Shown one piece after another: positions 1,858-42,084 of a stretch of 64,000 nucleotides of DNA. Each line of letters begins with the position of its first letter. The first letter of the stretch is position 1. Source of the DNA: Diphasiastrum complanatum (taxonomy: Eukaryota; Streptophyta; Lycopodiopsida; Lycopodiales; Lycopodiaceae); assembly GCA_029204225.1 (NCBI GenBank), contig CM055109.1, positions 32,806,927-32,870,926 of the forward strand, given 5' to 3'. The notes beneath the pieces were generated by a model. That model saw only the letters and a program-made list of their open reading frames with translations, did no database searches and was not told the origin of the DNA. The position numbers were made by a program, and so were the translations under genes.

Positions 1858-3645
1858 TAGCGTTCTATTTTTCTTTCTGCCACAACGTTGTATTCTGGTG
1901 TGTATGCAGGAGTGAATTGGTGTTTGATCCTCTGTTCTTCATAGAATCTTGAGAATTCTATGCTTTTGTATTCACCTCCATTGTCAGATCTAAGGATCTG
2001 TATCTTTTTTGAGGTGTGTCTCTCTACGAATGCCATGAACTTCTTGAAAGAATCAAATACATTGGACAAGTAGTAGATCGTGGTCATTCATTTGTATCCA
2101 TCTATGAACGTTAGAAAATATCTCAAACCTGAGAGTGAATCTGTTTTCATCGGTCCACACACATTAGAGTGGACGAGCTCAAGAACTTCTTTGGCTCTTC
2201 TTCCCTCGTGTGTGAATGGATTCCGATGTTGCTTGCCTTTCTGACAAGCTTCGCAGAACTCAGCCTTTGGCCTTGAAATCTTGAGACCTGTGACAATGTC
2301 ATTTCTGCTCATGTCATGCAGGCTCTGCATGTTCAGATGATACATTCTTCTATGCCAAGGCTCTGCATCCGACCGTCAACAACTTGTTTGTCGTCTTCTC
2401 GATCATACGGCAAGTGTTGCCATTGAACAAAACTCGAATGCCTAGATCTGCCATCTTGGAGACAGATAGTAGATCCTTTCTGAGTGAGGGCACATAGAGT
2501 GCTCCTGGCAACTCTGCTTGGCCTGACAGTGTTTGTAGCTGTAGAGAGCCAATGCTTTTGACATCGTGTCTGATTTCATCGCCTAGAATCACTGCTCTAT
2601 CATTTTCAAGTTTGCGATAGTTGATCAAGATCTTCTTGTTGCAGGTTATGTAAGATGTTGCTCCTGAATCGATAACTACATCGTAGTTGTGTTCAGAGTA
2701 GCTTGTCAAAGCTTCGTCGAGTATCCTGAAAGCTTTGTCACCTCTTTCAGCATCCTTTTATGACTCTGCAACGTTTGTCTTTTCAACTTTGTTTTTTCTT
2801 TTTGGGTTGAATCTATGATCGTATGCAGAATGTCCTTTCTTCTTGTAGTGCATGCAAGGTATTGTTGGATTGAACCAGCATTTGTTGGCCGTATGGCCTG
2901 GTTTGTGGCAGTGATTGCAGGAAGAAGATTGTTGATTTGAGGACTTCTTCTTCTCGAATCTTGGCTTGTTTTTGTTCTTCTTCTTTCCTTTCATGAAGAG
3001 AGCCTTCTCTTGATCACGGCTTCCCTCTCCTTCATCTCTCATCAGCAACAAGACTGATTGCTTTGTCGAATGTCATATCTGGTAGACTTAGTATGAGCAT
3101 TCTCAGCGGCTGATAGAATGTCGGGAGAGATTTCATGAAGTACATCAGCTGCTGTGGTGCTGGGACCTAGTGCTCCTGTCCTAATACAGTGAGTTGAGCG
3201 AAGGTCATTCTGATCTTCTCAACGTGCTGATCTAATTGGTTGCCATCCCACCGTATGGATTGCAGCTAATTGTGAAGGTGCATGACTAAAGCTGCAGTCC
3301 TCACTTCATACTTCTGCTTTAATCTTTCCCAAGCTGCATGGCTGCTTTCGTAGTTTTCAATCTGCATGAGTAGATCTTCATTTATGGATGAAAAGATGAT
3401 CGCCATTGCGCGCTCATCCTTTCTGATCCATTCAGCTCTCCTCGGGTCTCCCTCTGGAGGCTGCACCTCTGAGAGCTCGATCACCGACCAGATGCCTTCG
3501 CCCTTCAAGAGTGTTTTGATTTTGAATTTCCAGATTCTGTAATTTGCACCATCAAGACTTATTGCTACTCTGGTCTGGATTGTCGTAGCTATATTGTGTT
3601 GTCTGGAAGAATCACTGCTGGAATATCAATAGTGATAACCTGTAG
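1858..3645 (-). pseudogene. Tnt1-like copia element T: leader, gag, protease, integrase (3' truncated)
   Basis: Read on the minus strand, this is the 5' half of a copia element. After the primer site come a short leader, a gag segment (3508-3266, WERLKQKYEVRTAALVMHLHN), a CCHC zinc knuckle (CNHCHKPGHTANKC near 2930) plus a second degraded one, an aspartic protease with DSGATSYIT near 2660, GAG-pre-integrase (ICACQ-type pair, CEACQKGKQHRNPF), and integrase to the AERK motif at about 1860. Several frame breaks separate these blocks. The first integrase Asp is changed (HSN instead of HSD) and IDDYS has become IDGYK, so catalysis would be lost. RT and RNase H are missing at the junction with fragment B. 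Confidence 0.85.
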
Positions 3646-24250: not shown

Positions 24251-24811
24251 TTGCGTTTCTTAGGTCCTATCATTTATGTCTATTTTTCTTCAAAACATAT
24301 ACAATAGAGCATTTATAATTGATTGAGGAAACTTACCACTAATAAATAGCTGATATTTCATGCTACAAATAAACTTTCTCAACTAACTTGGAATATAAGC
24401 ATGCTAAGGGATTCCAGCTAGTGCCATTCAAACATTCATTTTAATCTAAGCTTGTATTATGGCGTCTTATGAAGTGATTCAAAATTTATTGCATTGTCCT
24501 TGTATCACACACATACTTGATCAATAATGCGAGAAGTATTGTAGTCATTATAAATCCTTCATAAAATCGAATAGACTATACAAACTTATATAGTCTTCCT
24601 CCCGTTATGCCTTTGGCTATACCAAAGATAAACCTTCTCGATCAAGCATAAATCAACGTAGAACTCAACATGATGTCCATCATCTTTCAAATCATAAATA
24701 TTGAATCATGAAATTTGGGACTACTTTCATGAACATTGTAATATTTTGAGTTGCAAAATGTGTGATCACTAAATTTGTAGATGTATAAAACATGAATACC
24801 GAATTGTGAGA

Positions 24812-25062
24812 TGTTAGAAATCAATGATAAACTTCATTGTTACTGTTTACGATGTACATTAATGTTGACAGCTGTTACCAACTGTAATTAGCCGTAGGCT
24901 AGTCTATTAGTCTATTCTCTCTATCAGGGTTCAGGGTTTATATGTACATTTTATATTCAATATGAAGGTAGTGTGATAGAGTGACAGTGCATGTTCTTCT
25001 TCCGCCTTCTTGTGGTGATTGTTTATGGTGAATGCTTGATGTTGCATATCTAATTCTTGACA
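24812..25062 (+). repeat. 5' LTR of copia element H
   Basis: A 251-bp stretch starting TGTTAGAAATC and ending ATTCTTGACA, directly followed by a primer site. It shows the TG...CA termini and the short length seen in many plant copia LTRs. The matching 3' LTR was not found in the window. Confidence 0.8.
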
Positions 25063-25074
25063 TGGTATCAGAGT
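25063..25074 (+). other. Primer-binding site of element H
   Basis: TGGTATCAGAGT, matching the initiator-Met tRNA complement in 11 of 12 bases. Confidence 0.85.
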
Positions 25075-25246
25075 AGCAATAGTCCTACGTGTCTGATCAG
25101 TGGATACAGCTTGTCACACGCTCCACAAAGAAGTGAGAAAGTCCTTCACGGGAGTTGAAAGCTTGGAGAGATAAAACGGCTGGAAGAAATCATTTCTTGG
25201 TGTATTTTGCAGGTTTGGAGCTCATAATCATCAGTGGGAAACGAAG

Positions 25247-25449
25247 ACATAGTCCCGGAGGCATCAGAAAGGCCAGGGCAGCATTAAACAAGTTGAAAAT
25301 CTGTTGAGTGGGGAGATTTTTATAATACCTCCTAGTTGTTGTGAAAAGCACAGTCTCGGAGGCCTCCAAAAGGCCAGGGCAGCATCAGACAGATTGAAAA
25401 TCTGTTGAGTGGGGGAGATTTTTACAATACTTCGTAGTTGTTGTGGAAA
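25247..25449 (+). repeat. Two tandem ~101-bp units in the H leader
   Basis: Each copy contains AGGCCAGGGCAGCAT, TTGAAAATCTGTTGAGTGG and GAGATTTTTA...TAGTTGTTGTG. The copies lie end to end between the primer site and gag. Confidence 0.9.
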
Positions 25450-25705
25450 GTGCTATTTGTGTGAGAGATTTGCCAATAAATCTCTCATTTGTCTGTTTGG
25501 AGTACCACAAATCATACTAGATAGTGTCTAGTACTGTTATTCAGAGTTAGAAAGCTTCATACTTTTCACATTACTGATCTTTGTCTTTTGAACGATCACA
25601 CATTTTAAAATCTTTGCAAAGAGGAGGCGGCGTAGTCGTCGCGCCGAAGTGGGAAATCTAGAATATTCTCTCTGAAAGTTCTTATATTCTCTCTTTTTAT
25701 TTGTA

Positions 25706-25947
25706 CCAATATCGGATCCAAGCGCGCTAGCTGAAGAGAAACTCGAGCAGCCATATATCTGCGCTCCAGTCCGATATCGCATGTTCGTACCAATATCGGA
25801 TCCAAGCGCAAGAGCTAAAGAGAATTCTTAGCAGTTGTACATCCGCGCTCCAGTTCGATATTGCATGCTCCAATATCGGATCCACGCGCACAAGTTAAAG
25901 AGGATCCTGAGCAGTCGTACTTTCGTGCTACATTCCGATATCAGGTG
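25706..25947 (+). repeat. Three tandem ~80-84-bp units in the H leader
   Basis: Units start at CCAATATCGGATCCA (25706, 25790, 25870). Each continues with AGCGC, a GCAG box and GCGCTCCAGT..CGATAT. This CpG-rich array sits about 110 bp upstream of the gag start and stands out from the AT-rich surroundings. Confidence 0.92.
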
Positions 25948-26055
25948 TATAACCGAAAAAAATTATTATACAATTCTGTGGCATGATAAAATTTGGAGAC
26001 TAAGTTGTGTGTTCAGACTGAGCCATTTTTGTGATCCGAACTTGTCTATCCAGTA

Positions 26056-26597
26056 ATGGCAACTCTAAGTGAGAGTGTCCTCAATGAGTCAACCAAATTG
26101 GAAGGAGCCGACAACTATGCAGTTTAAAAATTCAAACCAAAGAATATTTTGATGAAAAATGAGCTATGGAAGATCGTGATAGGTGAAGAGACAAGGCCAT
26201 TGATTGAAGAAGATCAATGGGCATTTGACAGGAGAAAATGGAAAGCACAGAATGTCATCAACTTATCATTTAGAGATGAAATTATTCACTACATTTTGGA
26301 TTCAGAAGGACCAAAAGAAGCATGGGATACGTTGAAGGCATTGTTTGAGACCACAAACACATCTCGAGTGCTATTCCTGAAGACGAAGCTGCACACATTG
26401 CGGATGGATGATGGTGCAACTGTTGCTGATCACCTACTGAAGATCAAAGAGATTCGTGACCAATTAGCAGCAGTTGGAGAGTGAGTATAGGATCGTGAGA
26501 TCATCAGTTGACATTGAATAGTTTGAGTGAGTCACATCAGATGTTTGGGAAAATCTTCCAACCTATGAAGAGTTAGGTGGATTGCTTTTGCAGGAAG
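26056..26597 (+). pseudogene. Element H gag, N-terminal part (interrupted)
   Basis: Starts ATG with MATLSESVLNESTKLEG, then (after one stop) NELWKIVIGEE, KEAWDTLKALFETTNTSRV and DHLLKIKEIRDQLAAVGE, typical of the copia gag (UBN2-like) domain. Further stops follow. The frame YEELGGLLLQEE is cut exactly at the GGAAG duplication, and gag resumes at 32455 with QRQENLSHHNKE. It was an ordinary copia gag before the family A element inserted. Confidence 0.88.
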
Positions 26598-26881
26598 TGT
26601 GAAAAATTGTCAACTAGTAGTATTTTCCTAACTTGAGATTTTGTAGGCCTATGGCCAAATAAAAGTTAGAGATAGGTTCATACATGTATGTAGAGGCCCA
26701 AAGTATGTGTACACTACTTTTGAGGTCACATTAATTAGAGGAGGTCGAGTGTGGAGCTCTTCTATTGGCTCATAATTTGGTGCATTCCTATTTGACCAAA
26801 TTTCTAGGTATATGGGTGAATCCTATTGGACCCCAATTTTAGCCTATCATAAGACAAGTGGCCAAGAGGCACTATGGCTGC

Positions 26882-26889
26882 TATAAATA
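26882..26889 (+). promoter_or_regulatory. LTR TATA box
   Basis: TATAAATA in the middle of the LTR, a normal place for the U3 promoter. Transcription would start roughly 30 bp downstream. The same box lies at 32081 in the 3' LTR. Confidence 0.75.
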
Positions 26890-27035
26890 GCCATCTCCAC
26901 GAGTATGTACACATCTCATTTTCATTCTATTGAATGAATGTTATGCTCTTTGAAGATCCATCTTCTTCTCTCTCACTTTTTTGTTCATATCTTGCATTCT
27001 AGCCACTAGAATTGTGATTTCTTTGTTGCTATGGC

Positions 27036-27049
27036 TTCACACGTGTGAA
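27036..27049. promoter_or_regulatory. TTCACACGTGTGAA palindrome in 5' LTR
   Basis: A perfect 14-bp palindrome around a CACGTG core, downstream of the TATA box. Its copy in the 3' LTR is at about 32235-32248. bHLH or bZIP binding is inferred only from the core. Confidence 0.5.
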
Positions 27050-27250
27050 ATGCAGGTTGTAGGCTCTGAAGTACGGACAGGGACAGCAAGTTTCTGTTTG
27101 TGGAAGCTTATGATCAGATTTTGATGTTTAGTTGATGTTTAGTATGCTTAACATCACAATTTCTATCATTTTTTCAATCTAGATGTGCATAACTTCCATG
27201 GCCAAGATCTTTATGAAACTTTAGCATCTTTTGGATCTGAGTTTTTCACA

Positions 27251-27262
27251 TGGTATCAGAGC
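27251..27262 (+). other. Primer-binding site of intact element
   Basis: TGGTATCAGAGC begins immediately after the LTR end with no spacer; complementary to initiator-Met tRNA. Confidence 0.95.
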
Positions 27263-27850
27263 ATTAGGCGGCCAAATGTGCAGGTTTTGCCAGATTTAGA
27301 AGAGATTTGTGGGCGAGTTTGCTTTTGTAGCATTCCAATCAAGTTTCTAGCTAAAAATCTTGTTGATTTATGTGTAGAAATTGGATCTTTGTGATCAAAA
27401 CATCATTTGTATGCATTTCAATTGAAGTAGGGCGAATTCCCTCTGTACTTATCAGAATAAGGAGACAAAATTTGTTTTGGAAAGAGGGAGATGCAAGATC
27501 CAACAAGATCCTATTAGTTTTCCATTCTAGCATATAGTTTTTTGATTCAATTTCTTGCTTCTTCATGTCAAAAACTTCAAAATTGATGTAACCCTCTGAT
27601 TTTCAGTTTGCTGAATGATTCAAGAGTGTATTTCAATCTTAGGAGTGAGGGAAAAGCAAGTATATTGAGGTTTGGTCTTGGTTTGATCAAGAAATCATAA
27701 AACTAGTGGCTAAAATTGAGGAAAAAGTGAGGAAAAAGTAAGGTTTTAGGTTCCAAATCTTTGTGATTTCTTCTTGTGTTTCATTTGTTGATTCAAGAGA
27801 GTGCTTAGTGCATTGGAACAGGTCAAAGATCAGAGATCAATCATTGCAAC

Positions 27851-30800
27851 ATGGCTACAAATGGAGGCTACATGTTGGAAAGCAATGATAGGCTTACCTC
27901 CCTCAACTATTCTACTTGGAAAGTAAGGATGGAGTCTTTGCTTGAGATGAATGAGTTGATGGATATTGTTGTAGGTGTGGAGGAGAGACCTTTGGCACCT
28001 CAAGAACAATTGAGGTATGACAAGAGGGCAAAGAAAGCCCTTCACATGATCAAGATGAATGTGACAAATGAGCTTATCAAAGAGGTTGGTAAGTGCACAT
28101 CATCTAGTGAAGCTTGGGAAGCCTTGAAGAAGGTTTATGAATCCAAGTCTACTTCTAGAGTGTTGACTTTAAGAAGGCGAATCTTTTCTTGTATGCAAAA
28201 GAAGAGTGAGAGTGGACATGCTTTTGTTTTGAGAGTTAAAGCATTGAATGATGAGTTAGCATGCATTAATGATGGCATAAATAATGAGGAGCTTGTTCAA
28301 GTGATTCTCAATGGCTTGTTGGATGATCATGCTAATCTTGTTCAAAGTTATGCTATCCAAAAATGTTTACCAAGTGTTGGAGACTTGCAAGAGGTCTTGT
28401 TGGCTGAAGAATTCAGGTTGCAAGCAAGAGTGGGAGCATCTTCTACATCTCAAGGAGGAGAAGAGGAGGCAATGTTCTCTAAAGGCAAGTTCAAGGGCAA
28501 AGGTAAAAGCAATTGGTCTAAAGGGCAAGACCAAGGTGAGCACTCTACTTTTGGCAAAAAGAAGGATAGATCTAAGCTAAAATGTTTCTATTGTGGAGTC
28601 AAAGGGCATTTTGCTAGTGATTGTTTTAAGAAAAAGAGGGATCAAGGGGAAAAGCAAACCAATCTAACTATTGATGAGGGTGGGGATGAGCTTCTTTCAA
28701 ATGATGCTTTTGTTATGTCATCTTGCTTGTTGGCTAATCATGGAGACATTGATCCTTGGTGGATTGATAGTGGAGCCACTTCTCATATGACATATCATAA
28801 AGAGTATTTTTCATCTTTAATGGCATTTGATGGTGATAGGAAGGTAATCTATACCGCAAATGATGGTGAGTGTGCAATCAAGGGGATTGGCACAATTCCT
28901 ATTTCACTTTCTACAAATAGGAATATAGAATTGAAAGATGTTTTGCTCATTCCATCCATTACCAAGAACTTACTTAGTGTAAGCCAAATGCTTGACAAAG
29001 GATTCAAAGTTGAGTTTGATGGTGATGCTTGCTTGATCAAAAAGGGGTGTAGTATCATTGCAAAAGGGAAAAGGCAAGGGAAATTGTTCAAGCTTGATGC
29101 ATGTGTTGTTGCTAACCAAGTTGGATGCATGGCAAATGAACAAATGTCAATTCAAGAGGTATGGCATAAAAGGATGGGACATCTCAACTACAAGGCCTTG
29201 GAGGTAATAGCCAAAAAGGAGGTAGTAAGGGGACTTCCCAAGTCTCTTACTTGCTTGAATCATGTTTGTGAAGAATGTGCTTTGTCTAAATCACATAGAT
29301 TGCCATATACTAGATCTATATCTAGATCTAAGATGCCTTTTTCTCTCTTGCATTCGGATATTCATGGTGTTACTACAATTAGCAATGGAGGTGCTAAGAT
29401 GTATGTAACTTTCATTGATGATTTTAGTAGATTTTGTTGGGTTTATCTACTAAAGAGCAAGGATGAGGTGTTTGATGTGTTTGTCAAGTTCAAAGTTGCT
29501 ATTGAGACTCAATTTACAACCAAAATCAAATGCTTGAGGAGCGACAATGGTGGTGAATACATTTCTAACAAATTCAAAGCCTTTTGCGATGAGCATGGGA
29601 TCAAGAGGGAGTACACATGTCCAAGAACACCACAACAAAATGGAGTGGCCGAGAGGAAGAATAGAACCTTGTGTGAGAGTGCAAAGGCAATGAGATTGAA
29701 TGCTAATCTTCCTAAACCTTTTTGGAGTGATGCTTTGTTGTGTGCAAATTTCCTATGCAATAGATGGCCAAGTGTTGTATTGGAAGGAAAAACCCCTTTT
29801 GAAGCTTTGTTTGGTACGAAGCCTAATGTCAAGTTTCTAAGAACTTTTGGATGCATTTGCTACTTCAACATTACTCTTGATGATAGAACTAAGGAGGATC
29901 CATCTTCAAGAAAGGGCATTTTTGTTGGTTATAGTGAAGTAAGCAAAGCATATAGGATTTATGTTCCTTTAATCAAGAAAGTGTTCACAAGTAGGGATGT
30001 CATTTTTGATGAAGGTAACATTCCAAAAGTTGTTTCAAGTGATGATGGTGTTGTTGCAACTAATGTGCTTGATGACAATGGAGTTGATGACACATTGGAT
30101 GTGGATGTTGAAGAAGCCTCTTCAAGTCAAATTCCAAGGAGAACTCCAAGGCATAAAGTGAAACCCTCAAGGCTCACTTATGATGGCAAAGGTAAGCAAG
30201 TGGTGGATGGATCCAACTATGCTTTCCTAACTTCTTTTGATGTACCTTCATGTGTAGATGAAGCAAGGCAAGAAGAGGAATGGATCCAAGCAATGGATCT
30301 TGAGTTTGAAGCACTTATGAAGAACAACACATGGAGATTGGTGGAGCTTCCAAAGGGCAAAAGTGCAATTGGATGCAAATGGATCTTCAAGGTAAAGACA
30401 AATCAAGATGGATCTATCAACAAGTTGAAGGCAAGGTTGGTGGCTAAAGGTTATGCTCAAGAGCATGGCATTGACTATGAGGAAACCTTTGCACCCGTGG
30501 CAAAGATGGTGAGCATAAGAGTAATCATTTCCCTTGCAACTCTTTATGGATGGGATCTTTGGCAATTAGACATTTCTAATGCTTTCTTGAATGGTGATCT
30601 TGAAGAGGAAGTCTACATGGAGCAACCCGAGAGCTATGTTTCTCATAGCAAGCCTAATCATGTGTGTTTTCTACAAAAAAGTTTGTATGGTCTTAAGCAA
30701 GCACCAAGGAGTTGGTATGCTAGGCTTAACTCTTTTCTACTTTCTCAAAACTTCACTATGAGTGAGTATGATCATTCACTTTACTTTAGAATTAGTGCTA

Positions 30801-31801
30801 ATGATGTTACAATCCTTCTAATTTATGTGGATGACATTATTTTAAGTGGAGGGAACAAGGAAGATATAGAAGATATCAAGAAAGCACTAAAAAAGGAATT
30901 TGAAGTGCATGATCTTGGTCTTTTGAGCTATATCTTAGGAATAGAAGTAATTAGAACTTCTCAAATCACTTTTATTTCACAAGAGAAGTATGCTATTTCT
31001 ATTCTCAATAGATTTCATATGGTAGATGCAAATCCTATTGATACACCTATGGAATCACATGTAAAGCTAACTATAAGAGGTAATGAAAGATCCTTCGAGG
31101 ACATTACTCTCTATAGGAAGCTAATAGGTTCTCTTATATATCTAACCATCACAAGACCTGATTTATCTTATTGTGTTGGTAGATTAAGCCAATTCATGCA
31201 AGATCCTAGCATAGAACATTGGAAACTAGGAAAGAGGATCTTGAGATACATCTCGGGAACAAAAGATTTTGGCATTGTTTATAGAGGCTCATCACCTAAC
31301 TTATTTGGTTTTTCAGATTCAGATTTTGCAGGAGACCTTATGGATAGAAAATCCATAAATGCACATGCTATTTTCATAGGTGATGGAGCTATCTCATGGA
31401 TGTCGAAGAAACAAGCAACTATATCACTTTCTTCTAGTGAGGCCGAGTACAAAGCTTTGACATCATGCACAAAGGAGATGGTGTGGATCAAGAGGATGAT
31501 TATGGAGCTTCATTTGCTGGATTTTTCAGAGAGTCCAATCATCTTTTGTGACAACCTTTCAGCCCAAAGTCTAGCAAGCAATCCGGTTTTCCATGCAAGG
31601 AGCAAACATATCGAGGTGGCTTACCATTTTGTGAGAGAACAAGTGTTGGCAAAAGAGATCAAGCTTGAACATGTCCCATCAAAGGAATGTGTGGCTGATA
31701 TCTTTACCAAAGCATTGGGAAAGGACTTATTTTTCAAGCATAGAACAAGTCTTGGTGTACTTTCTAAATCTATGCTAAAACTAGTTGAAGAGGGAGTGTG
31801 A
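27851..31801 (+). CDS. Ty1/copia Gag-Pol polyprotein (intact)
   Basis: A single 1316-residue polyprotein for retrotransposition. Gag (about 1-240) includes KRAKKALHMIKMNV and SRVLTLRRRIFS. A CCHC zinc knuckle spans 245-258 (C245, C248, H253, C258). The aspartic protease has DSGAT at 306-310. GAG-pre-integrase covers about 430-495 with H439/H444 and C473/C476. The integrase triad is D503, D565 and E601, with exact D-35-E spacing. RT (about 822-1065) has D907 and YVDD at 992-995. RNase H (about 1150-1290) has D1156/D1158, E1197 and D1234. The start follows a 588-nt leader and matches the start of the 54692 gag copy. The TGA stop lies within the first five bases of the 3' LTR. Gag and Pol share one frame, so their ratio must be set by another route such as splicing or processing (inference). 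Confidence 0.97.
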   Translation: MATNGGYMLESNDRLTSLNYSTWKVRMESLLEMNELMDIVVGVEERPLAPQEQLRYDKRAKKALHMIKMNVTNELIKEVGKCTSSSEAWEALKKVYESKSTSRVLTLRRRIFSCMQKKSESGHAFVLRVKALNDELACINDGINNEELVQVILNGLLDDHANLVQSYAIQKCLPSVGDLQEVLLAEEFRLQARVGASSTSQGGEEEAMFSKGKFKGKGKSNWSKGQDQGEHSTFGKKKDRSKLKCFYCGVKGHFASDCFKKKRDQGEKQTNLTIDEGGDELLSNDAFVMSSCLLANHGDIDPWWIDSGATSHMTYHKEYFSSLMAFDGDRKVIYTANDGECAIKGIGTIPISLSTNRNIELKDVLLIPSITKNLLSVSQMLDKGFKVEFDGDACLIKKGCSIIAKGKRQGKLFKLDACVVANQVGCMANEQMSIQEVWHKRMGHLNYKALEVIAKKEVVRGLPKSLTCLNHVCEECALSKSHRLPYTRSISRSKMPFSLLHSDIHGVTTISNGGAKMYVTFIDDFSRFCWVYLLKSKDEVFDVFVKFKVAIETQFTTKIKCLRSDNGGEYISNKFKAFCDEHGIKREYTCPRTPQQNGVAERKNRTLCESAKAMRLNANLPKPFWSDALLCANFLCNRWPSVVLEGKTPFEALFGTKPNVKFLRTFGCICYFNITLDDRTKEDPSSRKGIFVGYSEVSKAYRIYVPLIKKVFTSRDVIFDEGNIPKVVSSDDGVVATNVLDDNGVDDTLDVDVEEASSSQIPRRTPRHKVKPSRLTYDGKGKQVVDGSNYAFLTSFDVPSCVDEARQEEEWIQAMDLEFEALMKNNTWRLVELPKGKSAIGCKWIFKVKTNQDGSINKLKARLVAKGYAQEHGIDYEETFAPVAKMVSIRVIISLATLYGWDLWQLDISNAFLNGDLEEEVYMEQPESYVSHSKPNHVCFLQKSLYGLKQAPRSWYARLNSFLLSQNFTMSEYDHSLYFRISANDVTILLIYVDDIILSGGNKEDIEDIKKALKKEFEVHDLGLLSYILGIEVIRTSQITFISQEKYAISILNRFHMVDANPIDTPMESHVKLTIRGNERSFEDITLYRKLIGSLIYLTITRPDLSYCVGRLSQFMQDPSIEHWKLGKRILRYISGTKDFGIVYRGSSPNLFGFSDSDFAGDLMDRKSINAHAIFIGDGAISWMSKKQATISLSSSEAEYKALTSCTKEMVWIKRMIMELHLLDFSESPIIFCDNLSAQSLASNPVFHARSKHIEVAYHFVREQVLAKEIKLEHVPSKECVADIFTKALGKDLFFKHRTSLGVLSKSMLKLVEEGV
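31787..31796 (+). other. Polypurine tract of intact element
   Basis: GAAGAGGGAG abuts the 3' LTR. It is the expected primer for plus-strand synthesis and also encodes the last residues of the polyprotein. Confidence 0.85.
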
Positions 31802-32449
31802 AAAATTGTCAACTAGTAGTATTTTCCTAACTTGAGATTTTGTAGGCCTATGGCCAAATAAAAGTTAGAGATAGGTTCATACATGTATGTAGAGGCCCAA
31901 AGTATGTGTACACTACTTTTGAGGTCACATTAATTAGAGGAGGTCGAGTGTGGAGCTCTTCTATTGGCTCATAATTTGGTGCATTCCTATTTGACCAAAT
32001 TTCTAGGTATATGGGTGAATCCTATTGGACCCCAATTTTAGCCTATCATAAGACAAGTGGCCAAGAGGCACTATGGCTGCTATAAATAGCCATCTCCACG
32101 AGTATGTACACATCTCATTTTCATTCTATTGAATGAATGTTATGCTCTTTGAAGATCCATCTTCTTCTCTCTCACTTTTTTGTTCATATCTTGCATTCTA
32201 GCCACTAGAATTGTGATTTCTTTGTTGCTATGGCTTCACACGTGTGAAATGCAGGTTGTAGGCTCTGAAGTACGGACAGGGACAGCAAGTTTCTGTTTGT
32301 GGAAGCTTATGATCAGATTTTGATGTTTAGTTGATGTTTAGTATGCTTAACATCACAATTTCTATCATTTTTTCAATCTAGATGTGCATAACTTCCATGG
32401 CCAAGATCTTTATGAAACTTTAGCATCTTTTGGATCTGAGTTTTTCACA
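31797..32449 (+). repeat. 3' LTR of intact family A element
   Basis: 653 bp and, reading line by line, identical to 26598-27250. It is followed by the second GGAAG duplication. Confidence 0.97.
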
Positions 32450-34551
32450 GGAAGAACAACGTCAAGAGAACTTGAGTCATCACAACAAGGAATTTGATCA
32501 AGCTCTTGCAGTCAAGGGACGTGGTGGTAGATTTGGTCGTGGAAGACACCAATCAAGAGGTGGAAACTCAAATCGTGGATCATTCCAACAATTTCAAGAA
32601 CAATCCAATGATGGCCCAAATCGAGGCAATTGGAATCAAGGCCGAGGTCAAGGATGCAGCCATTTCAGGCAAAATAAACTTGGAAATTGTAGGTATTGCA
32701 ACAAACCTGGCCATTGGGAGCGTGAATGCTTCAAAAAACAGAAGGAGATGGAACAAAGAAAAGACAAAGGGCAAGTGAGAAACTATGTTGATCAACATCA
32801 ATTTGATGATTATTATTATGAAAACAATTATACTGATCAACATCAATAAGATGATGATCAATATGAAAATGATACAGGCGAGAGCTCAAAATTGTTCATT
32901 ACAGCATTAATGACAAGTGATGAAACCAAGGATACTTCGTACATTGATAGTGGTGCATCCAAGCACATGACTTCAAGGAAAGAGTGGTTTTCAGAACTCA
33001 AGAAAACTCACAATGGTGATGAAGTTGGACAAGCCGATGGCAAATTGTTATCTGTTAAAGGAGTTGGAGTGGTACTAGTGAAGTTAGCCAGCGGGAAGAT
33101 GAAGCGGATAAGCAATGTGCAATATGTACCTGGCTTAGCTAACAATCTACTATCTGTTGGGACGATGGCTGATCAACAACTCAAGGTTGAGATTGATAGC
33201 GACAAATGTCTTGTCAAAGACATCAAGAATCACTACAAAGTGATTGCTACAGGAGCTAGAGTCAACGGGAATCGACTCTACAAATTGAATGCGAGATCTT
33301 TTGCTCAAGCTATAGTAAGCACAGTTGATAGTCGAAGTGATCTTTGGCATCAACGATTCGGTCATATTAGTGCTCAAAGTTTATAGATTCTCAAAAGAGG
33401 TAATCTAGTTATAGGATTGCCTGATATTTCTTTTGAAGGAAAAATTTGTGAAGGTTGTATTTTGGGAAAACAACACAGAGAGAGGTTTACCAAAAGTGGA
33501 GCAAGGAGAGCCAGTATCCTAGATCTTGTCCACAGTGATCTATGTGGACCTATGCAGACTAGATCTCTTAGTGGCTACTATTACTTTATTACCTTCATTG
33601 ATGATTATAGCAAATGCATTTGGATTTATTTCATAAGCAAGAAATCAGATGCTTTTGCTAAGTTCAAAGAATTCAAGGCATTAGTTGAAAAGCAAACAGT
33701 ATGTTGCATCAAAACTTTGAGATCTGATGGAGGTGGTGAGTATTTTTTGACAGAATTTATTCATTTTTGCAAAGATCAAGGGATCAAGAGGCAGACTACA
33801 ACACCTTATTCACCACAACAAAATGGAGTTGCAGAACGAAAGAGCAGATCTATTGTTGAGATGGCCAGGGCGATGCTCAAAGGCAAGGGTCTGCCAAACA
33901 CCTTTTGGGCAGAAGCTTGTAGCACAACTATGCACATCCTGAATTGGTGTCCTACAAAATCTGTGGAAGGTAAGAAACCTAATACTTCTCATTTGAGAGT
34001 ATTTGGTTGTGATGCTTATGCTCATATTCCTGATGAGAAACGAAGGAAATTGGATGCAAAAGCTATCAAGTGTATTTTCCTTGGATATGATGAGAAGGCC
34101 AAGACATACATGATGTATGACACAAATGCACAGAAGCCTGTAATTTCTAGGGATGCTACGTTTGATGAAATGGGCCAAGGTGAACAATCTGAAGTAATCA
34201 CTGAACCTTTTGATGAGGGAGCGAAAGTACAGGTCAAGAAGGAAGTGGATTTTGATATAGAAAATCCATTGGACAAAGGCAAGCCTGATGCTGAAATTCC
34301 CAAGAGAGTGCCTAAATGGTACTTATCAGTCACAGATGGTGCAAAGAAGGGAGATACTCCCGAATCTAGTGAGCAGGGAGAGCTTAGAAGATCAAGTAGA
34401 AATTGAAAACCTCCTGCAAGATTAGAGATGAAATTATCCCTAATGGGATCCATCTTAACGGCTCAAGAACCTAAAAATTTCAACGAAGCAAAGGAACACA
34501 AGGAGTGACATGCAACTACGGAAACAAAAATGGAGGCTATATCGAAGAACA
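32450..34551 (+). pseudogene. Element H: gag end, protease, integrase
   Basis: Continues element H after the nested insertion. It reads a basic RGGRFGRGRHQSRGG region, a CCHC knuckle (CRYCNKPGHWEREC), a stop near 32848, protease IDSGASKHMTS near 32945, GAG-pre-integrase WHQRFGHIS, a stop at 33384, CEGCILGKQHRERF, and integrase with HSDLCGP, LRSDGGGEY and NGVAERKSRS. The C-terminal GYDEKAKTY segment follows, ending near LRRSSRN. Stops occur at 34404 and 34506. The frame IISKN-type text before RT is cut at the GAACA duplication where element G landed. This is a Tnt1/Tork-type layout, and the element is dead. Confidence 0.9.
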
Positions 34552-35376
34552 TGTGCAAAAAGTACAAAAAGGACCAAGAGTGGATCCTACCTCAAGAGGG
34601 ATTGGTTGTCAGATTACTTGATCTATCAATCTACTTGAGATTAAGATCAATCTAGATCAATTCTAGACACAAAATCCTAACAAGAACAATCATTAATTGA
34701 AGGTAGGTGTACTTTCTGGTTTCACACATGTGAAACACTGTCTGAGTACGCACTCCAACCTGAAAATCAAGTACACATTGATAGAACCTCAAAACAATCA
34801 AGAAAAATCAAGACAAATGGAGAGATTGACACAAAATTGCTTCCAAAACCAAGATTGGTGTCTCACAATGATTATGGCCAAATGTGGCTCTATATATACA
34901 ATAAGTGGAAGCTCGTGGTATTGATCATCCCTCTGATCCCACATGTGTGAAGGTGCTTTGTCATATGATGATTCATCATGCAAAATCAACACTTAGACAA
35001 AACCTTCTATTTTGAGCACTTTTGGTCCATTTTCCTTCTATGTGGAGATCTATTTGGAAATCTTCTAGAAGTCAAAATTCACCTACTTCAGCTTATTCCA
35101 CACATGTGAGCTGTCCTCTACACATGGGATATGACACCTAACCAAAGGATGTGGCTCATGCAATCAATAGATTGATGCCATGTGTCATATGTCTAGAAAA
35201 CTAGTTTTTGGCCATTTTAGCCACTAGAACTTGAATTAAATCATATGTACAACATATATGATTATGGTACATGACAAGTACACTAGTTTCGCACATGGGA
35301 ACAGGCTCCACACATGTGTGTTTCTCTATATACAAGATTTTTGGCCTCTACCAAGCTTATTTTTGCATTTTTCACA
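34552..35376 (-). repeat. 3' LTR of element G
   Basis: 825 bp. On the plus strand it begins TGTGCAAAAAGTAC and ends TTTTTCACA. The adjoining CTCCTC is the polypurine tract read on the minus strand. It holds several CACATGTG or CACACATGTGTG palindromes (34940, 35098, 35309). Confidence 0.92.
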
Positions 35377-36180
35377 CTCCTCAAAAATCTAGCTGATGGA
35401 AAACATGATGATCTTGAACTTGAATCCATGGGCTGAATTGGTCTTTGTTGGTTCAAAAGGTGTGAAGATCAACCGATGAGCTTGATGTTGATCTGAAATC
35501 ACCATATCCATGATAGTGCTTCTTTGATGTTGACATCTTTGATGAGCTTGAGAGCTTTGCACCATCCTAGCACCTCCAAAATTGATTCCTTCCAATTTTC
35601 ATGTAGATGCTTGACCTTGAGGCTTGCTCCTTCTTCATGTGCATGCTCCACATGGGATATGCTTCTCCTTTCCTTGAAATGTGAGCTACATGGATTCAAC
35701 CATATTTCTTGAGTTTCATTTTGGAATCACAATTTGAGAAGGTCTCTCCTCCTCAATCCTTGGCACATTTGAACCTTGAGATGACTCCTTAAGATCCTCT
35801 TCATGGTGCTCCTTTTTGATGGAAATCCGAGACCTCCATGTCTCATAATGATCACAACAAGTATGACCATTCAATATGCACTTCTAATGTTATCAAGATT
35901 ACTTATGCTAGAAACATAAGTCCAAAATCACTACAGCTTGGCATGATTTTTCCAATATTGAAATCAAAAGGTATTTCCATCTCAATAAGGGTAACTACTT
36001 GGTTATAGATATAAGAGTCCACTTTGGATGCTCACTTATTCTCATAAGAAGTTTACAACTTGCCTTTAAGATTGAAAACTTACAATTTTCATTTTTATGA
36101 ATGAACACATCATTCATGATCTTATTGAAACCAAAAGATCCTACATTATGAAGATATTTATATTTTCTTGACTTCATATT

Positions 36181-36870
36181 TTATGTAAGTTTACAAGGAA
36201 AACATGCTTTGCTATATTTTAAGGCATCACACTCAACTAGTATTGCCTTAATCCACCTTTGAGATACAAAAATCTCTTCAAAGCAAAATGGTTCTTCATA
36301 AATTGACATGAGAGCATAAATGAAACTATTTTCATTTTGTGATTGTTGCTCCTTATTCTTGATTGATTTCTCTTGGATCATAACAATAAGTTTGACCTTA
36401 TCTAAAGTTCTAAGCAAAATACTTTCCAAGGACACAAAATAAATCCAAGTTACTTTCATGAAAGTGATATTATGCACTCCCAAATGAAAAATTTCAACAG
36501 ATTTGACATGTGTTGTGATGGACTCTTGAAGACAAATCTTGCAAGTCCTTGAGAGACTCCAAGCCTCATTCACCTTTCCACAAAGGAAACACCTTTCCTT
36601 GGACTTGTCCTTCTTGTATTTGCATTTCGAACTTGAAGCTCCATCCTTTACCTCGGCCCCCTTGCTTTGGTTCTCCTTGGATGGATTGGTCTTCTTTTTG
36701 TAGCATCTTGAGGAAAAATATCCTTCCTTGCCACAAAGGTTGCACTTAGGATCCTTTCTTTCCTTCAATAGGATGCCACCTATTGATGCTATGTGAATAA
36801 AAACCTGTGATATGATTCTACAAATGTAATTTGTGACTCTCAAGAGACTAGATTTGAACATCTTCAACAA
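36181..36870 (-). pseudogene. Gag/RT-start remnant inside element G
   Basis: A 229-codon minus-strand frame without a recognisable full domain. It has a zinc-knuckle-like CNLCGKEGYFSSRC in which the His is Tyr, and a second partial CFLCGK motif. Near its end, EEPFCFEEIF...RWIKAILVECDALKYSK resembles the first segment of copia RT (EP..FEEA...W..AM..E..AL.KN). If correct, protease, integrase and most of RT have been deleted from between them. A working product is very unlikely. Confidence 0.6.
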
Positions 36871-38436
36871 TCTAGAAGGATCTAGAAAAGATCTAGCTCA
36901 CAAACCTAAGAATCAATCTTCACAGTATTGACTAGTCACTTGGAAACTTTGCTTTGATCATTAAGACAAAAGCACACAATCTTTGAATCAAATCACTAAA
37001 GAAATCAGACCCAATCTCCTATTGGAATCATCAAATACCAATGACTCTTTCTTTTAAAAGTTGAAATGGATATGAAAGATTTGACACCTAGATTTTCCTT
37101 TTTACTTGACTAGTTCTCTCAACACTTGAGATTCTTGAACAAAAGATGGGTTTTGTTTCAAACACCTGAAAATCAATCTTAATCACTTCTTTTGGACTCA
37201 CTCTTTACCCAAATAATCTCATTCTTGAGATTTAGAATGAATTTGATTTTATTTGAAAACAAACTATACCACCAATTTTTCACAAAGCTTAAAAATTAGA
37301 CAACTAGAGATTCACAAAGATCTCAACCATGCATAAATACTCAAATATGGACTCCTGCTCATTCTAGACATCAAATGGGATCACAAATTGACCCTCACAC
37401 TCTCACAAAGGAAGTTGAATAGAACTAATTTGAGTTTCATACATACTATGTCAATTTTTGCTCAACAAATTGAATTCAATCACTCTTATTGGATTCCACC
37501 AATTACTCTATTTTTTAAGACTTGGAATGAAATTCAAAATCAAAAGTTGAGATTTTTCTCACTAAGATATTGTGCTTCAAAGATCTAATGCCACTTAGAA
37601 AGATTTGATCACTTAGGAAGAGACAAACTCTCCACCAATAACAACACAAAATGAGCTTCTAGATCTTGCCCTCTACAAAGGAAGGAACTCTTAGAAAATT
37701 GGATCTCTCTCTACACATTTGCCATAGACACCTTAATGACTCTTCTCAAACCTTACAATCACTCAAACAAATTAAGTAGGGCTGAACAATGTGACTTGGA
37801 TCTCAATCTCTTTTCTAGAACTCTCAATTTAAGCCAATATATGTCAAATTCTACAATAAAGATTTGCATAGATGCTCTATATGCACTAAAAACTCTCAAA
37901 GGTTTCACTTGGAGGACAGATCTAAGGATGTTTTCTAGCAAATTGATGCTTCTAAACTTGACCCTATCGCTCTTGAACAAATCTAGAGTGATGGTACAGT
38001 GGATTTCATCCTCTCACCTTGCATATCACTCCTTAATCTATGATTTTTGGCAAAACCACTCTCAAATTCAACATGCACTCAAATAATGCACCTAATTCAA
38101 GCTTCAATTTTAATTTTTTGGCTGATCTAATCCAATAACTAATCAAGGGATTGAATTTATATAGAAAATGCTTGATTTTGCACCAAAATCACTCAAATTG
38201 GGTATGTGAGTCAAATTCTACAATTTTTTGAGATTTCTCAATTAAAATCGGAGCGGTACGACCTCACACGTGTGAAAAGGGTTCCTACAGCCCACAACAA
38301 GATCTGGACCAAAAATTTTGAGGATAGCTATCAAATCCAACTCGCTACACAAAATTTGACTAATTTCCAAAAAACTGCTAATTTTGGCATGGATTTGGAT
38401 TAACCCTATCAATTTCAACAAAATCTCTTGTACTAG
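36871..38436 (-). other. Leader/internal non-coding part of element G
   Basis: About 1.5 kb between the primer site and the first coding remnant, AT-rich with no recognised domain. It contains another CACACGTGTG palindrome at 38265-38274. Confidence 0.65.
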
Positions 38437-38448
38437 GCTCTGATACCA
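38437..38448 (-). other. Primer-binding site of element G
   Basis: On the minus strand TGGTATCAGAGC, directly next to the 5' LTR. Confidence 0.92.
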
Positions 38449-39268
38449 TGTGCAAAAAGTACAAAAAGGACCAAGAGTGGATCCTAATCTGATCCTCAAG
38501 AGGGATTGGTTGTCAAATTACTTGATCGATCGATCTACTTGAGATTAAGATCAATCTAGATCAATTCTAGACACACAATCCTAACAAGAACAATCATTTA
38601 TAGAAGGTAGGTGTACTTTCTGGTTTCAGACGTGCGAAACACTGTCTAAGTACGGACTCCAACTTGAAAATCAAGTACACATTGATAGAACCTCAAAACA
38701 ATCAAGACAAATCAAGACAAATGGAGAGATTGGCACAAAATTGCTTCCAAAACCAAGATTGGTGTCTCACAATGATTATGGCCAAATGTGGCTCTATATA
38801 TACAATAAGTGGGAGATCGTGGTACTGATCATCCCTCTGATCCCACATGTGTGAATGTGCTTTGTCATATGATGATTCATCATGCAAAACTGACACTTGG
38901 ACAAAACCTTCTTTTGGTCCATTTTCCTTCTATATGGAAATCTACTTGGAAATCTTCTAGAAGTCAAAATTTGCCTACTTCAGCTTATTCCACACGTGTG
39001 AGTTGTCCTCTACACATGGGATATGACACATAACCAAAGGATGTGGCTCATGCAATCAATAGATTGATGCCATGTGTCATATGTCTAGAAAACTAGTTTT
39101 TGGCCATTTTAGCCACTAGAACTTGAATTAAATCATATGTACAACACATATGATTATGGTACATGACAAGTACACTAGTTTCACACGTGGGAACAGGCTC
39201 CACACATGTGTGTTTATCTATATACAAGATTTTTGGCCTCTACCAAGCTTATTTTTGCATTTTTCATA
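38449..39268 (-). repeat. 5' LTR of element G
   Basis: 820 bp. On the plus strand it begins TGTGCAAAAAGTAC and ends TTTTTCATA, where the usual terminal CACA has mutated. It shares with the 3' copy the palindromes CACATGTG (38844), CACACGTGTG (38991) and CACACATGTGTG (39201). Confidence 0.9.
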
Positions 39269-40607
39269 GAACAAAACATGAAACTTGGTTGAGCTACCTG
39301 ATGGTAGGACGCCTATCACATGTAAGTGGATCTACAAGACGAAGTATGGAGCGGATGGGCAACTCAACACGTACAAGGCACGATTAGTTGCAAGAGGTTT
39401 TGAGCGGCAGGAAGGTATAGACTTTGAGGAGACCTTCGCACCTGTAGCCAAAATGGTAACTATTCATTCTATCATTGCAATTTCTACTTTCTATGGCTAG
39501 AAAATCTAGCAAATGGACGTCAAATCTGCTTTTCTTAATGGAGTATTGGATGAAGAGGTATATTAAGAGCAACCTCAAGGGTTTGTTGAGCCAGGAAGAG
39601 ATTATTTGGTTTGTAAACTCAACAAAGCCATATATGGATTGAAGCAAGCACCACGAGCATGGTACTCTTGCATTGATGAGCACTTCAAGCGAAGGAAAAT
39701 GGTAAAGAGTGATGCTGATCCTAATCTTTACATTCTAAGGCAAGATTCAGATATAGTGTTCATTGTGTTGTACGTGGATGATTTGATTATTACAAGAAGT
39801 AATGAGAGGTTAATTAATGAAATCAAATCAAATCTTTCCAATGCTTTTGACATGAGTGATCTAGGATTGATGCACTATTGTCTTGGCATTGAAGTTTGGC
39901 AAAAAGAAGAAATGGTCTTTCTTACACAAAGCAAATATGCACAAGATTTGCTTTATAAGTTCAATATGCAGGATTGTAAGCCCTTGAGTACACCTATGGA
40001 TGTCAACACGAAGCTTACTGCATATGATGAATTTGAGAAAGTGGATGCTTATTTGTATAGACAGCTAGTGGATAGTTTGATTTATTTGACACACACATGA
40101 CCTGATATTTCTTATGATGTTGGTGTTGTTAGTCAATTTATGCAAGATCCTAGTCAAGCACAATGGAAGTCTGCTAAACGTATTCTCAAATACATTCGAG
40201 GGACATTGAATTTTGGTTTGAAGTATGATCAGCCTGAAGCGCCAATTTGGTAGGCTATACAAATGCCGATTGGGCAGGGAATATTGATGACAGAAGATCT
40301 ACCAGTGGTCATACATTCAGTTATGGTACAACTACAATTTTATGGAGCAGCAAAAGGCAACCTAGAGTAGCTTTATCATCAACAAAAGCTGAATATCTAG
40401 CACTCAGCAATGCTACACAAGAAGCGGTATGGTTACGAAGATTGCTTGTGGATTTAGGTCAGTCACAATTGAATGCTACTACTATATCTTGCGACAATCA
40501 AAGCTGCATTCACCTTGCCAAAAATCCAGTTTTACATGCTTGAACCAAGCACATCGAAATACACTATCATTTTATTCGAGAGAAAATTGTCAATGGTAAA
40601 TTGTAAA
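39269..40607 (+). pseudogene. Element H: RT and RNase H
   Basis: Resumes element H after G. RT shows LVELPDGRTPITCKWIYKTK, ARLVARGFERQEGIDFEETFAPVAK, MDVKSAFLNG, AIYGLKQAPRAWY and YVDD (in LYVDDLII). The RNase H region follows with YISYDVG-like text, [28 protein letters not shown] and a CDNQS motif. Stops lie at 39499, 39564, 40099 and 40252, and one near 40541. The sequence departs from copia after HYHFIREKIVNGKL, so the ADILTKAL end and 3' LTR are missing. Without the two nested elements it would be a normal copia gag-pol order from 24812. Confidence 0.9.

Positions 40608-42008: not shown

Positions 42009-42084
<76 letters not shown>
42009..42084. repeat. (GA)n microsatellite
   Basis: About 38 uninterrupted GA units. 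Confidence 0.98.

What the first reader, a model, noticed from the sequence alone, without database searches (positions are those of the whole stretch)
26598..32449. Complete, probably young and possibly mobile copia element nested in an older one
Both 653-bp LTRs read as identical over their whole length. The target duplication GGAAG is perfect, and the 1316-codon gag-pol keeps every catalytic residue I could locate. All other coding retroelements in the window are broken, so this is the only candidate for current activity.
Basis: partly seen in the sequence, partly recalled or inferred. Interest (0 to 1): 0.8.

Follow-up and report, generated by a model that had tools for sequence, protein, structure and literature searches.

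The report
Very young, high-copy copia retrotransposon
This is an intact jumping gene of a well-known plant type that landed so recently that the matching stretch of a second, near-identical contig in the same genome assembly still lacks it, and its family has more than a thousand almost identical members there.

Summary
The element spans 26598-32449: two 653-bp LTRs with 0 differences, a perfect GGAAG target duplication, PBS and PPT abutting the LTRs, and one open 1316-codon gag-pol frame with protease, integrase, RT and RNase H motifs. It lies inside an older, broken copia. The genome search adds two things. (1) A 60-kb contig, C1657, is colinear with the locus (162 mismatches in 59,904 aligned columns) but has a clean empty site with a single GGAAG, so the insertion is polymorphic, most likely heterozygous. 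(2) It is not alone: its LTR-PBS junction occurs 1173 times with up to 3 mismatches, 1127 of them exact, with 0 control hits. In 20 sampled copies, all on C1, LTR pairs differ by 5 substitutions in about 13,060 bp and 19 of 20 have perfect target duplications. One further copy also has an empty site on a partner contig; three others tested were uninformative. So: an ordinary copia by anatomy, in a very recent and possibly ongoing burst. RNA and mobility were not tested. New member of a known kind.

The parts
26593..26597 (+). target-site duplication GGAAG, 5' copy
   Evidence: single copy in the empty site of C1657
26598..27250 (+). 5' LTR, 653 bp, TG...CA with 9-bp perfect terminal inverted repeat TGTGAAAAA/TTTTTCACA
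26882..26888 (+). TATAAAT box in the LTR (position 285), likely promoter
   Evidence: function inferred
27251..27262 (+). primer-binding site TGGTATCAGAGC, abutting the LTR; recalled as complementary to plant initiator Met tRNA
27263..27850 (+). leader; LTR-to-ATG distance 600 bp here, 609 bp in 27 and 610 bp in 2 of 29 sampled copies with a located start (gap near 27731)
27851..31801 (+). intact gag-pol ORF, 1316 aa, stop inside 3' LTR
27929..28426 (+). copia-type gag (Retrotran_gag_2)
   Evidence: E 2.3e-22
28583..28624 (+). CCHC zinc knuckle
28757..28786 (+). protease motif WWIDSGATSH (motif only)
29165..29278 (+). integrase H-x4-H...C-x2-C zinc-binding motif, aa 439-476
29351..29656 (+). 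integrase core with D503, D565, E601; region aligned to Ty1 integrase
30323..31054 (+). reverse transcriptase (RVT_2), YVDD at 30824-30835
31316..31555 (+). RNase H motifs (DSDFAG, SSSEAEY, CDN) with the family's SINAH box
31787..31796 (+). polypurine tract GAAGAGGGAG abutting 3' LTR
31797..32449 (+). 3' LTR, identical to 5' LTR
32450..32454 (+). target-site duplication GGAAG, 3' copy
26056..26592 (+). older host copia, gag part left of the insertion (stops present)
32455..34406 (+). older host copia, rest of gag, protease and integrase part
39270..40591 (+). RT/RNase H part on the same strand, probably of the same host copia, beyond a second nested element
   Evidence: continuity inferred

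Best explanation
An autonomous-looking Ty1/copia LTR retrotransposon that integrated very recently into the gag of an older, decayed copia. Inferred mechanism, from knowledge of the superfamily: transcription from the 5' LTR, Gag-Pol translated from one frame, tRNA-primed reverse transcription regenerating two identical LTRs, and integrase inserting the cDNA with a 5-bp staggered cut that yields GGAAG twice. It belongs to a family with about 1170 near-identical LTR-PBS junctions in this assembly, from a very recent burst, and its insertion is polymorphic (probably heterozygous). Shown: structure, LTR identity, empty site, family count, low divergence in a sample. Inferred: allelism of the empty contig, transcription, present mobility.
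For: 0 of 653 LTR differences, perfect TSD, PBS, PPT, open 1316-aa ORF with gag, protease, integrase, RT and RNase H motifs. Empty site: window 24450-26597 and 32448-33954 match one uninterrupted stretch of C1657 with a single GGAAG, 6 mismatches in 3655 bp; 60,000 of the contig's 60,077 bases were fetched and are colinear with C18, 162 mismatches in 59,904 columns. Family: 1173 junctions at up to 3 mismatches, 1127 exact, control 0; LTR 3' ends 2365, close to 2 x 1173. Of 20 sampled copies 20 have the second LTR in place, 19 perfect TSDs, 16 identical LTR pairs; 5 substitutions in about 13,060 bp. Gag open over the 304 codons read in 29 of 29 copies with a located start (30 examined); RNase H stretch open in 20 of 20. 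A second copy (C1:2956076) has an empty site on C3645. dN/dS 0.23, 0.20, 0.42, 0.23 against four pools of broken window relatives.
Against: No transcript, protein or new-insertion data. C1657 could be a recent segmental duplicate rather than the other haplotype; besides chromosome/short-contig pairs, one search also lists equal-scoring copia places on the same chromosome (for example two on C14, two on C3). Identical LTRs alone bound the age loosely (95% upper K 0.0046). The 20 dated copies come from exact-junction matches in the first 35 Mb of one chromosome, which favours young ones, and family members with more than 3 mismatches in the junction were not counted. The window copy has a private shorter leader and a private R110 in gag (Q in 29 of 29 others), of unknown effect. 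Only the gag start and RNase H stretch of other copies were read, not whole frames. Two dN/dS pools (host element, 'other') were saturated and gave no ratio. Three of five answered flank tests were uninformative.
Confidence: 0.92

Rival explanations
1. The empty contig is a recent segmental duplicate made before the insertion, so the insertion is not heterozygous but simply younger than the duplication.
For: A single 60-kb contig; allelism was not tested by depth or linkage. One search lists equal-scoring copia places on one and the same chromosome as well as on short contigs.
Against: Colinear end to end at 0.27% mismatches with no break in 60 kb; the only other ~100% place among 40 scored for the flank; several chromosome places have an equal-scoring partner on a short contig, as expected of unplaced haplotigs. 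Either way the insertion is recent.
Confidence: 0.12
2. An older insertion whose LTRs were homogenised by gene conversion or by the assembler.
For: Identical LTRs can arise this way; assembly of near-identical repeats is error-prone.
Against: Empty site on a contig 0.27% diverged; in 16 of 20 sampled copies both LTRs carry the same variants while LTRs differ between copies; 1127 of 1173 junctions exact.
Confidence: 0.03
3. A recent but now extinguished burst: the copies are intact yet silenced, and nothing moves today.
For: Mean LTR divergence is small but not zero (5 substitutions in 20 pairs). Intact sequence does not show transcription.
Against: 16 of 20 pairs identical; both informative sites empty on the partner contig. 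Neither shows movement today.
Confidence: 0.5

Closest known systems
Ty1/copia superfamily (Pseudoviridae) of plant LTR retrotransposons
   Same: gag, protease motif, integrase, RT, RNase H in one frame in that order, TG...CA LTRs, PBS directly after the LTR, PPT, 5-bp TSD.
   Different: Nothing of substance found; an unusual RNase H box (SINAH) shared by the sampled family. The lineage (Tork, Ale, etc.) was not determined for lack of a reference set.
TARE1 of tomato (PMC3701649; outline with abstract and section 20 seen)
   Same: A copia family in a recent massive amplification with few solo LTRs.
   Different: TARE1 per its abstract: 354 copies, 194-bp LTRs starting TA, solo:intact 0.05:1, most insertions 0.75-1.75 My old. 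Here: 1173 junctions (some alleles counted twice), 653-bp TG...CA LTRs, LTR divergence 0.038% in 20 sampled copies, about 0.015 My (0.005-0.034) at the rate that paper used, 1.3e-8.

Membership tests
Ty1/copia superfamily | integrase upstream of reverse transcriptase | tested here: met
   rve then RVT_2 in one ORF
Ty1/copia superfamily | copia-type gag, zinc knuckle, protease DSG | tested here: met
   protease by motif only
Ty1/copia superfamily | LTRs TG...CA with short TSD | tested here: met
   5-bp TSD confirmed by the empty site
Ty1/copia superfamily | PBS and PPT abutting the LTRs | tested here: met
Ty1/copia superfamily | integrase H-H-C-C and D-D-35-E | tested here: met
   alignment to Ty1 integrase
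Ty1/copia superfamily | RNase H conserved residues | tested here: met
   D/E/D motifs present; box SINAH atypical but shared by 19 of 20 copies
Ty1/copia superfamily | assignment to a named plant lineage by RT phylogeny | not tested
   no named reference RT sequences on hand
currently active family | transcription and new insertions | not testable with these tools
   no RNA or pedigree data
currently active family | insertion polymorphism | tested here: met
   empty site on a partner contig for 2 copies (window, L039) of 5 answered; the other 3 (L040, L041, L042) uninformative; L043 unanswered. Allelism of the partner contigs inferred

The most novel reading that the evidence does not exclude
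The family is in an ongoing burst: over a thousand near-identical copies arose within tens of thousands of years, a large share of them still heterozygous in this one plant, with hardly any older members among the 1173 junctions counted, as after a recent escape from silencing or a recent arrival from another species.
Probability: 0.35. Interest if true: 0.65.

Novelty: new member of a known kind. Interest (0 to 1): 0.42.

Why it matters
By anatomy it is ordinary. What is useful is the state it is caught in: a copia family with more than 1100 near-identical junctions and at least two insertions still absent from a near-identical contig of the same assembly. Such a family gives ready insertion markers, a chance to see how a plant genome silences a burst while it happens, and a check on whether intact copies still move.

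Tried and rejected
Tried and led nowhere: DNA search with the LTR itself returned 0 even for its own locus; the tool says it skips very common words, so this tells nothing about copy number, and pattern searches replaced it. Rfam at gathering threshold and ARAGORN on the window: nothing. PDB search with the RT-RNase H part: no hit at E 0.01. Search for the host element's own LTR pair between 22.5-26.15 kb and 40.3-44.5 kb: only one 59%-identity match. Further paper searches were seen as listings only, apart from PMC3701649; one search found none. Flank tests: copies L040 and L041 lie in repeats with 3353 and 2937 matches; L042 gave its own filled site and two one-mismatch, empty, probably paralogous places on C7 and C1031. 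L043 was asked eight times and never answered.

Considered and rejected: LTR recombination or excision as source of the empty site (recombination would leave a solo LTR; a single GGAAG with no LTR is the unfilled state; recalled knowledge); the SINAH RNase H box as a private inactivating change (shared by the family).

Rows dropped: 3 of 31 LTRs (L055, L058 with a length change, L064 with cut ends) were left out of the pairwise count. In the LTR-pair sample 20 of 30 fetched copies were used: the first 22 rows less L047 (interrupted by another copy) and L052 (skipped for no good reason); L060-L067 were not asked for. tblastn cells with stops or gaps were left out.

Full report
The element. The two LTRs at 26598-27250 and 31797-32449 are both 653 bp and identical (0 differences). 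They begin TGTGAAAAA and end TTTTTCACA, a perfect 9-bp inverted pair. GGAAG flanks the element on both sides (26593-26597, 32450-32454). TGGTATCAGAGC, recalled as the usual plant initiator-methionine primer site, starts at the first base after the 5' LTR (27251). A purine run GAAGAGGGAG ends at the last base before the 3' LTR. One frame, 27851-31801, encodes 1316 aa and ends on a TGA inside the 3' LTR. Searched in pieces against Pfam it shows copia gag, zinc knuckle, Pol_BBD, gag-pre-integrase, integrase core, SH3 and RVT_2, in copia order. The integrase piece aligns to Ty1 integrase in the PDB (E 3.5e-24). CCHC, DSGA, YVDD and the RNase H motifs are present, and the integrase has H-x4-H...C-x2-C and D-D-35-E (the narrower H-x3-H pattern found nothing). 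The LTR carries TATAAAT at position 285.

The surroundings. The insertion splits a copia gag: related gag lies left (26056-26505) and the rest of gag, protease and integrase right (to 34406), with RT and RNase H, probably of the same element, beyond another inserted LTR pair at 34550-35374/38447-39266 that is 93.6% identical. The host has stop codons on either side of the insertion, and the 38 other scored places of its left part in the genome are 90-94% identical, so it is clearly older. The longest other frame in the window is 339 aa. Relatives of the element itself lie in the window, broken, at roughly 64-79% DNA identity. Against four pools of them dN/dS is 0.23, 0.20, 0.42 and 0.23 (A, B, C, E); two further pools, one of them the host element, were saturated. 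The frame was thus under purifying selection in its ancestry.

The empty site. The 648-bp left flank, searched in the window's own assembly (1.74 Gb, 5176 contigs), gives 40 scored places; only two are at about 100%: the own site on C18 and C1657:37715-38362. The fetched C1657 locus matches window 24450-26597 with 4 mismatches and, without a break, window 32448-33954 with 2, leaving a single GGAAG. Bases 1-60000 of the 60,077-base contig were fetched and run colinear with C18 from 11.8 kb left of the window to window 54047, with 162 mismatches in 59,904 aligned columns (0.27%). Other differences are a 79-bp stretch at window 2378-2456 that C1657 lacks, a length difference at the GA repeat near 42035-42058, and indels of 1-52 bp, many at simple repeats or near the contig ends. 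The plain reading is that C1657 is the other haplotype and the insertion is heterozygous; a recent segmental duplicate is not excluded. In either case, since these elements are not known to excise cleanly (recalled), the insertion is younger than the split of the two sequences: 0.10 My at 1.3e-8 substitutions per site per year, 0.68 My at 2e-9 (the first rate is the one used in PMC3701649, the other is assumed).

The family. A 35-base pattern over the LTR end, PBS and leader occurs 1173 times with up to 3 mismatches (589 + 584) and 0 times in the reversed control; 1127 of these are exact (567 + 560). More diverged copies were not counted, and alleles on unplaced contigs are probably counted twice. 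A 32-base pattern at the LTR 3' end occurs 2365 times, 19 more than twice 1173. That is a net figure: among the 100 rows listed (all exact, C1 up to 65.0 Mb) I count by eye 3 isolated LTR ends with no junction, and 3 junctions without a paired end, against 50 junctions; so the solo share looks like a few per cent. Thirty copies (the first 30 exact rows, all on C1) were read at their 5' end; for 20 the 3' LTR was fetched too. All 20 have it at the expected distance, 19 have a perfect 5-bp TSD (L038 does not), 16 pairs are identical, and the pairs differ by 5 substitutions in about 13,060 bp. That is 0.038%, about 15,000 years at 1.3e-8 (5,000-34,000) or 96,000 at 2e-9. The sample favours young copies, since it comes from exact matches; but exact matches are 96% of the 1173. 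Between copies the 5' LTRs differ by 0.31% on average, and 5 of the 27 others compared equal the window's LTR exactly, so several close source lines were probably copied. Gag is open over the 304 codons read in 29 of 29 copies with a located start, of 30 examined; the RNase H stretch is open in 20 of 20. Whole frames of other copies were not read.

More polymorphism. For copy L039 (C1:2956076) the left flank has a 100% partner on C3645, and 150 bases there show an empty site with one GTTTT. Copies L040 and L041 lie in abundant repeats and L042 has only one-mismatch, probably paralogous places besides its own; these three tell nothing. L043 did not complete. So both informative sites, of 5 answered, are empty on the partner contig. 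That is suggestive, not a rate.

Verdict. By kind it is an ordinary copia. Whether it moves now cannot be told from sequence.

Noticed in passing
31349-31375 (aa 1167-1175): RNase H box reads KSINAHAIF instead of the ST(T/S)G(Y/H)-like box of most other copia sequences compared; shared by the family (19 of 20 SINAH, 1 SINTH), so evidently compatible with amplification.
   Followed up: partly
34550-39266: A second element, probably on the minus strand, with LTRs 93.6% identical and only about 3 kb inside, also sits in the same old host copia.
   Followed up: no
25703-25942: An 84-bp minisatellite, 2.9 copies, upstream of the host copia's gag.
   Followed up: no
L046/L047 (C1:21289841 and 21295097): One family copy is inserted in the leader of another family copy in opposite orientation, TSD CAAAT.
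   Followed up: yes
L064 (C1:43866335): A family copy whose outer LTR ends are altered (first 9 bases of the left LTR not matched, last 5 bases of the right LTR different), directly followed by another copy (L065); perhaps an atypical integration.
   Followed up: partly
26598-27250: The LTR holds only 4 CpG in 653 bp (114 C, 128 G).
   Followed up: no
G000, whole assembly: Several copia places on chromosomes have an equal-scoring partner on a short contig, which suggests unplaced second haplotypes; others pair within one chromosome. Copy counts given here may include alleles twice.
   Followed up: partly
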